NCBI GenBank assembly: GCA_022822275.1
Contig: JAJEBZ010000105.1
Span: 1-34,545 of the forward strand
Direction of reading: 5' to 3'
Length of the DNA stretch: 34,545 bases
Origin: Candidatus Poribacteria bacterium
Lineage (GTDB): Bacteria > Poribacteria > WGA-4E > WGA-3G
The first letter of the stretch is position 1. Every line of letters begins with the position of its first letter. Below are positions 31,235-34,483 of this stretch, piece after piece. A program made the position numbers and the translations under genes. The notes beneath the pieces were generated by a model that saw nothing but the letters and a program-made list of their open reading frames with translations, was not told where the DNA came from and made no database searches.

Positions 31235-31723
31235 TTGGATACACGTTTGCAAATTTATCAGCAATCTTTTAGAATTTATCTTGATACCTGTTGTTTGAGT
31301 CGGCGTTTTGACGATCAAACGCAAATTCGGATTCACGAAGAAACTGAAGCAATCGGACAGATACTTAATTATTTTCAAGATGGACATTGGCTTTGGATAT
31401 CCAGCGGTGTTTTAGTTGAGGAAATTGAAAATAATCCTAATGAAACAAAACGGATTCAAATCAAAAGATGGCTAATTCATGTTGACCAAGATATTTCTGT
31501 TGAAACAAGTGAAATGTCAAGAGGCAGACAGATAGAAACATTGACGTTTCAAGCAATGGATGCTTTACATCTTGCTTGTGCTGAGAGCGGATCGGCAGAT
31601 GTTTTGTTAACAACAGACGACAAGTTACTCAAGAAAGCGAAAAGTGTGCAAACCCAACTCAACATCCAAGTTGATAATCCGCATGAATGGTTGCAGAAGG
31701 TAACAAAAAATGAAAATACTTGA
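31235..31723 (+). CDS. PIN-domain ribonuclease-like protein
   Basis: A PIN-fold protein of up to 162 residues. Acidic site: RIYLDTCCLSRRFDDQT (first Asp), ISSGVLVEEIENNP (Glu), AMDALHLACAESGSADVLL (Asp) and TTDDKLLKKA (Asp). No ATG precedes the domain; in-frame TTG at 31235 or 31247 are the candidate starts, and a GAGG near 31230 is better spaced for the second. Its 3' end overlaps the next gene by 14 nt, so they form one unit. No classical antitoxin gene lies upstream; the downstream partner, which carries antitoxin-like repeats, may fill that role. Start uncertain, domain certain. Confidence 0.8.
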   Translation: MDTRLQIYQQSFRIYLDTCCLSRRFDDQTQIRIHEETEAIGQILNYFQDGHWLWISSGVLVEEIENNPNETKRIQIKRWLIHVDQDISVETSEMSRGRQIETLTFQAMDALHLACAESGSADVLLTTDDKLLKKAKSVQTQLNIQVDNPHEWLQKVTKNENT

Positions 31724-32792
31724 AATGACAGATAAAGAACTTTATGAACTCGGTCAAAAGACACTTGCAGATAAACTTGGCACCGATCAGGTCGATCGGT
31801 TTATTCGCCAATGCAAACCGGGTGAGGGGGATTATTCTCTTGACAGACATAAGTTGTTGGAAAATGAACCTGATATAGACACCATCGTCAAGCGGATTCA
31901 AGAAAGGCGAGAAACCAGAAAAGTAGAAGAAAGGGAACGTGCGATAAGATTCGCTGCACCACAAAGCGAAATCCGAAAAATGACGGATATTGAAATTTTT
32001 GAAATCGGGCTTAAAGTTCTTATTGATAAACTTGGAGTCGCTGGATACTGGCGTTTTTTTCAACAGTGTCAAGAGATTAACAGAGGTTATCCTATTGAAC
32101 ACATTCAAAATAGAGAAGATGCCGAAAAAGAAATTGCGCTTTACACGGCAGGCTTAACGCTTAATCCGAAAATGGTTGAGAATTATATCAAGCGAGGCAA
32201 TGCCTATAGTTACATTGGAGAATACGACAAAGCCATCGTAGATTATAATGAAGCGATAAAGCTCAAACCTAATTATGCCGAGGCATACAGCAATCGCGCA
32301 AAAGCCCACCTTAAAAAAAATGATTTTGACAACGCCATTGCAGACTATACGAAGGCAATAGAACTTAACCCCAAAGATGCTGATGCGTATTACACACGCG
32401 GTAAACTTTACGTCGAGGGTAGTGAGTATGATAAAGCAATTGAAGATTTCAGCATGGCAATAAAACTTGAATCTGAGCATGCTGATGCACATGGTTACCG
32501 CGCGACCCTTTACAATGAACAAGGTGAGTATGATAAAGCAATTGAAGGATTTAGTAAAGAAATAAAACTTCGTCCCTACGATGCTGAGACTTATGAAGAA
32601 CGCGGTAAAATATACGTAAAAATAGGCAAGTATGACAAAGCAATCGTTGACTTTACTGAAGCAATTAAACTAACCCCAGACTTCACAGAGGCTTATTTTC
32701 AACGCGCTATGGCTTACTTCCGATTAGACAATTTGGAGTCCGCAATGCAAGATTTTGATAAGATTTCAGAGTTGAAACAGGATTCTACCTAA
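31710..32792 (+). CDS. protein with two antitoxin-like N-terminal repeats and TPR repeats
   Basis: 360 residues. Two related N-terminal units: EMTDKELYELGQKTLADKLG with VDRFIRQCKPGEGDYSLDR and DIDTIVKRIQERR, then KMTDIEIFEIGLKVLIDKLG with YWRFFQQCQEINRGYPIEH. The pattern 'TxxEIxELGxxxLxxxLGxxxxxRFxxQ...GDY' is what I know from small standalone proteins encoded next to PIN toxins in cyanobacteria and Poribacteria. From about residue 138 come five or six canonical TPRs (e.g. EYDKAIVDYNEAIKLKPN, DFDNAIADYTKAIELNPK). It overlaps the PIN gene by 14 nt, with AAGG upstream. No signal peptide, so cytoplasmic. A role as fused antitoxin or adaptor is inference. Confidence 0.85.
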   Translation: MKILEMTDKELYELGQKTLADKLGTDQVDRFIRQCKPGEGDYSLDRHKLLENEPDIDTIVKRIQERRETRKVEERERAIRFAAPQSEIRKMTDIEIFEIGLKVLIDKLGVAGYWRFFQQCQEINRGYPIEHIQNREDAEKEIALYTAGLTLNPKMVENYIKRGNAYSYIGEYDKAIVDYNEAIKLKPNYAEAYSNRAKAHLKKNDFDNAIADYTKAIELNPKDADAYYTRGKLYVEGSEYDKAIEDFSMAIKLESEHADAHGYRATLYNEQGEYDKAIEGFSKEIKLRPYDAETYEERGKIYVKIGKYDKAIVDFTEAIKLTPDFTEAYFQRAMAYFRLDNLESAMQDFDKISELKQDST

Positions 32793-32849
32793 ATTTTTAT
32801 GTTTGAGACACTATTTTACAGTTAAATTTTTTGCTGAGGAATAAATCTA

Positions 32850-33449
32850 ATGAGTAATGGTGTTGAGGAAAGGCTTAATGAGATTAAGAAAGACTTAGAA
32901 AACAATCTATCACCAATTGAGATTGTGAGAAAACACATTATTTTCGGAGAATGTTGTGAATTATCTCCACAAGATTATTTTAATTTACGGTCTGAAGTTG
33001 CTAAGAACTTTGACTTACATCCAAATGAAGTATTAGTTGTTGGATCAGCCAAATTAGGGTTTAGTATTGCTCCAAAGAAAGAGTACGAGCTATTTAACGA
33101 TGAATCTGATATTGATATTGCTTTAGTATCTTCCACACTTTTTGAAAAGTATTGGAGACAAGCTTATGATTTTAAGGATAGTGTTCCATATTGGCGTGAT
33201 TATTGGGAAGGATATGATGAATTTATTGCATCTCTATTTTATGGGTGGATAAGACCTGATAAATTTCCTAATTCAGAATATTTTCCATTAGGGAAAGATT
33301 GGTGGGATTTTTTTGAGGATATTGCGAGTAGTGGAAGATATGGTCATTATGATATTAGAGGAGGGTTATATCAGTCATATTTCTTTTTAGAGAACTATCA
33401 GAAAATTAGTATAGAGAAATGGAAGAAAAAACTTGGAGGAACAGAATGA
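32850..33449 (+). CDS. nucleotidyltransferase-fold protein, partner of the DUF262 gene
   Basis: 199 residues with a minimal nucleotidyltransferase signature: VLVVGSAKLGFSIAP (Gly65-Ser66), then NDESDIDIALVSSTLFEKYW (Asp87 and Asp89, the GS...DxD pattern). The rest is rich in aromatic residues (YWRDYWEGYDEF, GKDWWDFFEDI). It is too short and too diverged to assign to CD-NTases, MNT antitoxins or kanamycin-type enzymes. GAGGAA precedes the ATG. Its TGA overlaps the next gene's ATG in ATGA, so both are co-translated. Base composition from 32.85 kb onward is visibly more AT-rich than the genes to the left, a sign of transfer. I do not know the function. Confidence 0.8.
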   Translation: MSNGVEERLNEIKKDLENNLSPIEIVRKHIIFGECCELSPQDYFNLRSEVAKNFDLHPNEVLVVGSAKLGFSIAPKKEYELFNDESDIDIALVSSTLFEKYWRQAYDFKDSVPYWRDYWEGYDEFIASLFYGWIRPDKFPNSEYFPLGKDWWDFFEDIASSGRYGHYDIRGGLYQSYFFLENYQKISIEKWKKKLGGTE

Positions 33450-34483
33450 AAACAACAGTGACTAGTAGAACCATACGAGAGTTATTGACAGCTATTCGAA
33501 ACGACACTTTGTATCCAAGGCCTGAATTTCAAAGAAATTTAGTGTGGTCGAATAAACATAAAAATGCATTTATTAGGACTGTTTTAGATGGATATCCCTT
33601 TCCAGAAATATATGTTGCGGCTGGTGAAGTAGATCCTGTTACCGCAGAAGCAAAGGAGATGTTAGTAGACGGTCAACAGAGGTTGACTACATTGCAACAG
33701 TATTTCTATGCATCACCAGATTTAAAATTGTCGGGCGAGATTCCTTCTTACTCTGACCTTACCCATAAACAAAAATTATCCTTTTTAGAGTATGAAGTTG
33801 TTGTCCGATACTTAGGTAAAATGGATCATGACAACATGGTAGATATTTTTGAACGAATAAACTCAGTGAATTATGCATTGAATACAATGGAGATTCACAA
33901 TGCCAGATTTGATGGAGAAATCAAGCAATTCGCAGAAGAACTTGCAAGCCATTCTTTTTTTGAAAACCACTTTGTGTTTAACACAAAGGAAATACAACGT
34001 ATGAGTGATATTCGCTTTATGTTGTCTGTGATTATAACTGTAATGTCAAACTATTTTTCCTTAGATGAGAAATTTGAAGATTATCTTCGAAAATATAACG
34101 ATGAATTTATAGAGAAACGTAAATTAGAAACAGAATTTGAAGAAGTTTTTCGGTTTATAGATGATTGCGGTATCCATGAAAATTGCCGCGCATGGAAAAA
34201 ATCAGACTTATTCACGCTGCTTGTAGAAGTTTATAATGCTTTATTTGAAACAGAGAAGAGAATTAAAGCAGCAGAAGTAGGAGAACGACTACAAAGGTTC
34301 TATGATTTAGTAGATAAGTCAGCTCGTACAGATGAGGATTTTGGAACAGAAAATGGCAGGTTACAGGAATATTATAAGGCTGCTCTTCAGGGAACTAATA
34401 GTAAGACGAACCGCATAAGAAGAGGAAAAATCATACAAGATGTCATCAATGGTGATTTCGTGTTTGATAGAACAGAAAAATAG
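33446..34483 (+). CDS. DUF262 (GmrS/ParB-like N-terminal) protein without HNH domain
   Basis: 345 residues from the ATG at 33446, which has GGAGG inside the end of the preceding gene; a longer in-frame start at 33419 would overlap it and has no ribosome site. It shows the DUF262 core: ELLTAIRNDTLYPRPEFQR, NLVWSNKHKNAFIRTVLDGY, FPEIYVA, the hallmark VDGQQRLTTLQQYF (DGQQR at about 75-79), and FERINSVNYALNTMEIHNA. DUF262 forms the N-terminal domain of GmrSD and SspE-type restriction proteins, where DGQQR handles nucleotides or DNA modification. The C-terminal half is helical with no HNH (DUF1524) nuclease motif, so any cleavage must come from the DUF262 domain itself or another partner. 34484-34545 holds no gene start. 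Confidence 0.88.
   Translation: MKTTVTSRTIRELLTAIRNDTLYPRPEFQRNLVWSNKHKNAFIRTVLDGYPFPEIYVAAGEVDPVTAEAKEMLVDGQQRLTTLQQYFYASPDLKLSGEIPSYSDLTHKQKLSFLEYEVVVRYLGKMDHDNMVDIFERINSVNYALNTMEIHNARFDGEIKQFAEELASHSFFENHFVFNTKEIQRMSDIRFMLSVIITVMSNYFSLDEKFEDYLRKYNDEFIEKRKLETEFEEVFRFIDDCGIHENCRAWKKSDLFTLLVEVYNALFETEKRIKAAEVGERLQRFYDLVDKSARTDEDFGTENGRLQEYYKAALQGTNSKTNRIRRGKIIQDVINGDFVFDRTEK

What the first reader, a model, noticed from the sequence alone, without database searches (positions are those of the whole stretch)
32850..34483. Two-gene candidate defence cassette: nucleotidyltransferase-fold protein overlapping a DUF262 protein
Seen: ATGA overlap, GS...DxD motif in the first gene, DGQQR and FQRNLVW in the second, no HNH domain, and a more AT-rich composition than the flanking genes. 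Known: DUF262 domains occur in GmrSD type IV restriction, BrxU and SspE; nucleotidyltransferase-fold proteins act in CBASS, in MNT-type antitoxins and in other anti-phage systems. Inference: the pair forms an anti-phage or toxin-antitoxin module in which the NTase either modifies/silences the DUF262 effector or makes a signal for it. I do not recognise this exact pairing as a named system.
Basis: partly seen in the sequence, partly recalled or inferred. Interest (0 to 1): 0.7.

Follow-up and report, generated by a model that had tools for sequence, protein, structure and literature searches.

The report
Nucleotidyltransferase-like and DUF262 phage-defence pair
Two tightly overlapping bacterial genes, one resembling nucleotide-transferring enzymes and one resembling the control part of known anti-virus systems, travel together through many bacterial phyla and turn up in a known virus-defence hotspot, so they are very probably an unnamed two-gene defence system whose mechanism is still open.

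Summary
At 32850-33449 and 33446-34483 two genes overlap by ATGA. The first is a 199-aa protein (NT) with GS...SDID and no Pfam, PADLOC or NCBIfam match. The second is a 345-aa DUF262/GmrSD_N protein with DGQQR and no HNH domain. The window is a whole contig from a Candidatus Poribacteria MAG. Homologues bear out the pairing: wherever the contig continues, a full-length NT homologue is followed by DUF262 in many phyla, prophages, plasmids and E. coli. Searched blind from the DUF262 side in viral contigs, 13/13 high-scoring DUF262s have NT upstream and 0/54 lower-scoring ones do. The two proteins' distance matrices agree (r=0.91). In E. coli strain 1500 the pair lies between gpA and gpQ of a P2-like prophage, a published defence hotspot. 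One Poribacterial copy abuts type I R-M genes. The DUF262 resembles Menshen NsnA, but NsnB/NsnC are absent. So this is very probably an unnamed two-gene defence module. Mechanism remains inference: I favour a DUF262 NTPase switch gating a nucleotidyltransferase effector, with an AMPylating-antitoxin arrangement as main rival. NT lacks a conserved third catalytic carboxylate and no solved fold matches it.

The parts
32850..33449 (+). NT: 199-aa nucleotidyltransferase-like protein, first gene of the pair
   Evidence: ORF; homologues in Poribacteria, other bacteria, plasmids, viral contigs and E. coli, followed by DUF262 where the contig continues; dN/dS about 0.13-0.38; AF2 pLDDT 92.9; phrog_32008, unknown function
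33446..34483 (+). DUF262 / GmrSD_N protein (345 aa) with DGQQR and a helical C-terminal half; no HNH/DUF1524
   Evidence: Pfam PF03235 7.6e-23; PADLOC NsnA 2.7e-35 and PD-T4-2_A 2e-17; Foldseek best hit BrxU 7p9k, E 4.8e-4
33446..33449 (+). ATGA stop/start overlap
   Evidence: sequence; gaps of -8 to +13 nt in the 16 distant homologous pairs measured; same 4-nt overlap in E. coli strain 1500
33042..33065 (+). GSAKLGFS motif of NT (residues 65-72)
   Evidence: GSxK[LM]GFS nearly invariant in 29 divergent NT proteins
33105..33116 (+). SDID motif of NT (residues 86-89; D87 and D89)
   Evidence: both Asp invariant in all 29 NT proteins; aligns in register with MNT SDxD
33243..33260 (+). GWIRPD motif of NT (residues 132-137)
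   Evidence: invariant in the 22-member alignment, not kept in the deepest branch
33527..33547 (+). FQRNLVW motif of DUF262
   Evidence: F28, Q29, R30, V33 and W34 invariant
33668..33682 (+). DGQQR motif of DUF262 (predicted NTP pocket)
   Evidence: invariant in paired members; role as described for GmrS/BrxU/SspE (PMC10952713)

Best explanation
A self-contained, horizontally moving two-gene anti-phage module. DUF262 is a ParB/Srx-fold NTPase switch that senses an infection cue (modified phage DNA or altered nucleotide pools, by analogy with GmrSD, BrxU and SspE). Its HNH effector has been replaced by a separate nucleotidyltransferase-like protein (NT), made at matched dose from an overlapping gene. 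In quiet cells the two form an inactive complex. On infection, DUF262 NTP turnover frees or activates NT, which transfers nucleotides onto a host or phage target (tRNA, another RNA or a protein) and stops infection. SHOWN: the conserved pair, its co-inheritance, mobility, placement in defence loci, and retention of the DGQQR and SDxD motifs. INFERRED: complex formation, sensing, which protein is the effector, and the target. I hold about 0.85 that it is a real two-gene defence-type module and about 0.35-0.4 for this mechanism.
For: Pairing: all 16 NT loci in genome contigs that continue; 13/13 from the DUF262 side in viral contigs against 0/54 lower scorers; mirror-tree r=0.91, P 0.0002; gaps -8 to +13 nt. 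Defence placement: P2-like gpA-gpQ hotspot in E. coli 1500 (hotspot in PMC9122126); a viral-contig copy near a P2-type gpA gene (L053); type I MTase + PD-T7-4 + specificity subunit next door; HsdR_N and FRG genes next door; integrase-adjacent copies; a 6.2-kb plasmid. Patchy distribution: NT-profile match in 18 of 85 genomes of the phylum, about ten of them true pairs. DUF262 gates an effector in GmrSD/BrxU/SspE and occurs without DUF1524 in Menshen and PD-T4-2. D87 and D89 are invariant in NT, so metal-NTP chemistry is probably kept.
Against: No toxicity or phage data exist for this pair. NT has no conserved third carboxylate and no Foldseek match below E 0.001 in PDB or BFVD, so catalysis is uncertain. 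Nothing in the sequence says which protein is the effector. No complex was modelled. The defence context was not measured against a background rate.
Confidence: 0.4

Rival explanations
1. Toxin-antitoxin arrangement of the HEPN/MNT type: NT is the antitoxin that nucleotidylates (for example AMPylates) DUF262, the toxin or effector; infection stops or reverses the modification.
For: NT aligns in register with MNT proteins (E 0.003). The one full-length DUF262 that lost NT (G012) carries F135L and R185S at residues otherwise universal in paired and unpaired DUF262s, and its split cousin in G046 shares them, as expected if an uncontrolled DUF262 is harmful. Tight overlap and matched dose.
Against: Only one orphan lineage. 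An orphan NT fragment is also broken (it lacks the GS motif), which fits the opposite polarity equally well. DUF262 alone has no recognised toxic domain.
Confidence: 0.27
2. NT is a non-catalytic nucleotide-binding or sensing subunit, and DUF262 is the effector (NTP depletion or DNA nicking by the ParB/Srx fold).
For: No third carboxylate in the strand where NTases carry it. ParB/Srx proteins with nicking and NTPase activity are described (PMC12839542).
Against: D87 and D89 are invariant down to about 30% identity, which a dead fold would not need.
Confidence: 0.15
3. CBASS-like signalling: NT makes a nucleotide messenger that activates DUF262.
For: One family member has a weak match to CBASS cyclase profiles (best 9.8e-4). 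GS...DxD is shared with CD-NTases.
Against: NT is about 199 aa against 331 aa for the CD-NTase in G012, lacks a conserved third acid, and DUF262 has no known messenger-binding domain.
Confidence: 0.07
4. Not defence: a phage or mobile-element housekeeping or conflict pair that merely rides in prophages.
For: No functional data; several copies are in phage contigs.
Against: Chromosomal copies in many phyla, some among other defence genes and outside any obvious prophage.
Confidence: 0.08

Closest known systems
Menshen (NsnA-NsnB-NsnC)
   Same: The DUF262 protein aligns along residues 5-335 with NsnA (E 2.7e-35)
   Different: No AAA ATPase NsnB or NsnC next to the pair; partner is NT; no NsnA N-terminal extension. 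A Menshen NsnA/B/C operon annotated in a Vibrio phage shows the contrast
PD-T4-2 (DUF262 + HEPN-like protein)
   Same: DUF262 lacking DUF1524 (PMC10952713); PD-T4-2_A profile hit 2e-17
   Different: The partner here is NT, not a HEPN protein
GmrSD / BrxU / SspE
   Same: DUF262 with DGQQR; nearest solved fold is BrxU (E 4.8e-4)
   Different: No DUF1524/HNH nuclease domain or gene
HEPN/MNT toxin-antitoxin
   Same: GS...SDxD nucleotidyltransferase-like small protein in a two-gene operon
   Different: No HEPN gene; NT is about twice MNT size with a helical insert and no conserved third acid
CBASS
   Same: GS...DxD nucleotidyltransferase-like protein plus partner in defence loci
   Different: NT is not a CD-NTase by size or profile; partner is not a CBASS effector

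Membership tests
Menshen | NsnA-type DUF262 gene | tested here: met
   PDLC03877 2.7e-35; 21/21 members match. It is a separate subfamily without the NsnA N-terminal extension
Menshen | NsnB AAA ATPase and NsnC genes adjacent | tested here: not met
   None in window, L017 or other loci by ORF inspection. NsnB is detectable next to a true NsnA (8.3e-111)
GmrSD type IV restriction | DUF262 with DGQQR | tested here: met
GmrSD type IV restriction | DUF1524/HNH domain or adjacent GmrD | tested here: not met
HEPN/MNT toxin-antitoxin | MNT nucleotidyltransferase with GSx(n)DxD | tested here: inconclusive
   motif in register, hhalign E 0.003 but low probability, spacing longer; only sub-threshold Pfam hits
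HEPN/MNT toxin-antitoxin | HEPN partner gene | tested here: not met
   partner is DUF262
CBASS | CD-NTase matching cyclase profiles | tested here: not met
   window NT 0 families; 1 of 22 homologues weak, 9.8e-4
PD-T4-2 | DUF262 component | tested here: met
   PDLC04027 2e-17
PD-T4-2 | HEPN-like second component | tested here: not met
   NT has no PADLOC or Pfam HEPN hit
Polbeta-type nucleotidyltransferase fold | GS, DxD and third carboxylate | tested here: inconclusive
   GS nearly invariant and DxD invariant; third acid not conserved; confident AF2 model but no fold match
Anti-phage defence system (function) | reduces phage infection | not testable with these tools
   needs phage challenge

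The most novel reading that the evidence does not exclude
A widespread, unnamed class of bacterial immunity in which a DUF262 NTPase switch controls a two-aspartate nucleotidyltransferase instead of a nuclease, so that the output of a type-IV-restriction-like sensor is nucleotide transfer. The same NT family, in a second form linked to stand-alone GT51 transglycosylase genes, would mark a larger group of NTase-based conflict systems.
Probability: 0.35. Interest if true: 0.8.

Novelty: new variant of a known kind. Interest (0 to 1): 0.6.

Why it matters
DUF262 is a recurrent switch domain in phage defence, and its best-studied outputs are nucleases. A near-obligate NTase-like partner in many phyla, prophages and plasmids would add a new output. 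It also comes as a compact two-gene unit, already present in an E. coli P2-like prophage hotspot, that can be cloned and tested directly. Profile searches as used here match the DUF262 gene to Menshen NsnA or PD-T4-2 and miss NT altogether.

Tried and rejected
Rejected: a truncated Menshen or GmrSD operon (no NsnB/NsnC/HNH at this locus or in relatives). A missing third gene beyond the contig end (L017 shows an ordinary isomerase-like gene). The upstream TPR and PIN genes as system members (not seen with the pair outside Poribacteria). CBASS membership. The first viral scan used NT patterns only, so distant members were missed until the DUF262-side scan. Repeat and promoter scans gave nothing of note.

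Full report
OBSERVATION. NT (32850-33449, 199 aa) ends in an ATGA overlap with DUF262 (33446-34483, 345 aa). The second protein has Pfam GmrSD_N at 7.6e-23 and nothing nuclease-like; the first has no match in Pfam, PADLOC or NCBIfam. The pair has GC 0.340 against 0.406 for the window. The window is the whole of contig C7 of a 4.5-Mb assembly, and its nearest relatives are Candidatus Poribacteria MAGs.

REAL GENES, REAL UNIT. In Poribacteria both genes are under purifying selection (dN/dS about 0.13-0.38). Every full-length NT homologue found is followed by a DUF262 gene wherever the contig continues: eight Poribacterial loci including the window and, outside them, Ktedonobacter-type bacteria, Pseudomonadales, Thiocapsa, Bacteroidota, Asaia, Mycobacterium, Rhodospirillales, a delta-proteobacterium, Nitrospirota and viral contigs. 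Two plasmids also carry the pair (Cronobacter, 6.2 kb; Pseudoalteromonas THAF3), as does E. coli strain 1500. Gaps in the 16 distant pairs measured are -8 to +13 nt. To test the reverse direction I searched viral contigs with the DUF262 alignment only. All 13 DUF262s scoring 195 bits or more have NT immediately upstream; none of the 54 lower-scoring ones does. Pairwise distances of the two proteins over 28 loci correlate at r=0.91 (0.89 without Poribacteria; Mantel P 0.0002). Flanking genes differ from locus to locus, so the unit is two genes. In the 97-98% identical relative L017 the next gene is an ordinary isomerase/epimerase-like gene, which also answers the question of a third gene beyond 34545.

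ORPHANS. Among 85 genomes of the phylum, 18 have an NT-profile match, about ten of which are true pairs. Exceptions to pairing are damaged. In G012 a full-length DUF262 stands without NT at the same chromosomal spot, next to a type II restriction-modification pair. It has lost F135 and R185, residues universal in the NT-paired and unpaired DUF262s compared; the G046 copy shares the losses and is split across two contig ends, with an NT remnant beside it. G010 keeps only a broken DUF262, and G043 keeps a second NT fragment without the GS motif. This fits functional dependence, but it is few lineages and does not say which protein is harmful alone.

DEFENCE CONTEXT. In E. coli strain 1500 the pair lies between the replication endonuclease (gpA) and the portal (gpQ) of a P2-like prophage. 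That interval is the anti-phage hotspot described by Rousset et al. (PMC9122126). A query spanning the pair and its flanks matches part of 2,106 of 5,426 E. coli genomes, but only this genome covers most of it. In viral contig L053 the pair is near a P2-type gpA gene, and in L050 and L051 near integrases. In Poribacterium G030 (L021) the neighbours are a type I methyltransferase (6e-282), PD-T7-4 (8.6e-77) and a specificity subunit. In L023 they include HsdR_N and FRG-domain genes. In G012 the orphan DUF262 sits beside a complete type II CBASS (cyclase 9e-146, E1-E2, JAB, SAVED-nuclease) and a type II R-M pair. I did not compute a background rate of defence genes, so the enrichment is qualitative.

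WHAT THE PROTEINS ARE. The DUF262 protein aligns with Menshen NsnA (2.7e-35) and PD-T4-2_A (2e-17). That NsnA is the Menshen DUF262 gene is shown by a Vibrio phage annotated Menshen NsnA-NsnB-NsnC. All 21 paired members match NsnA, but no NsnB or NsnC accompanies them, so it is not Menshen. Its nearest solved fold is BrxU. Residues E54, R121 and N152 distinguish the NT-linked subfamily from unpaired DUF262s. NT gives a confident AF2 model (pLDDT 92.9) but no PDB or BFVD match below E 0.001. Its assignment to the nucleotidyltransferase fold rests on three things: GS and SDxD kept over 29 divergent members; sub-threshold NTP_transf_2, Polbeta and cyclase hits; and in-register profile alignment to MNT proteins (E 0.003). 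The last is strengthened by its relative, the transglycosylase-linked NTd family (NT-NTd probability 98.8%; NTd-MNT E 7.5e-5), with unrelated controls weaker. The predicted third strand (residues 168-174) carries no conserved acid, so it looks like a two-aspartate NTase. NT belongs to phrog_32008, unknown function.

MECHANISM. Established knowledge: DUF262 binds and hydrolyses NTPs and gates a nuclease in GmrSD, BrxU and SspE; DUF262 without DUF1524 occurs in Menshen, PD-T4-2 and Dazbog (PMC10952713). By that logic NT takes the effector's place, and I commit to a DUF262-gated nucleotidyltransferase (about 0.35-0.4). The antitoxin reading, NT modifying DUF262 as MNT modifies HEPN toxins (own knowledge of HEPN/MNT), is close behind (about 0.27). 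Sequence data cannot separate them.

VERDICT. A real and probably unnamed two-gene defence module, a new variant of DUF262-based defence rather than a new kind. No paper in the library searched names the pairing, but that library is incomplete and the PADLOC copy here dates from 2023, so a later name elsewhere cannot be excluded.

Noticed in passing
L028 6597-7986, L029 6631-7933, L030 6704-8120, L032 7244-8498: A second gene pair: a stand-alone GT51 peptidoglycan transglycosylase domain (Pfam Transgly 4.7e-28 in L029) overlapping a 220-240 aa NT relative (NTd), followed by variable genes (DNA methyltransferase, DUF4365). A recurrent coupling of a cell-wall enzyme domain with an NTase-like protein in Poribacteria and an Aliarcobacter plasmid.
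   Followed up: partly
L213 3001-4712, L126 4884-6724, L127 5001-6711, L128 3814-5557, L129 5001-6718: A sister DUF262 class in phage contigs is followed, overlapping or nearly so, by a roughly 220-aa protein with no meaningful Pfam or PADLOC match in those tested; possibly another unnamed DUF262 two-gene system.
   Followed up: partly
L109 81-7570 (G012:C156) against window 31235-34483 and L017, L023: The Poribacterial spot just upstream of the isomerase-like gene is a variable defence-rich site: NT-DUF262 in some genomes, type II CBASS plus type II R-M plus orphan DUF262 in another.
   Followed up: partly
window 31235-31723 and 31710-32792: A weak PIN-domain gene (PF01850, 2.3e-4, below cut-off) overlapping a TPR-repeat gene; the PIN gene is duplicated in relatives, and the two lie next to the pair only in Poribacteria.
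   Followed up: partly
L067 6042-7552 (G000:C308): The same genome has another DUF262 gene (413 aa, NsnA profile 1.1e-41) overlapping a small HNH-like ORF, a GmrSD-like layout.
   Followed up: no
L041 10102-14168 and L065 1486-5508: A metallophosphoesterase-like gene next to an HATPase-like gene recurs near NT-DUF262 in Thiocapsa and near NsnA/NsnB in a Poribacterium; possible further defence pair.
   Followed up: partly
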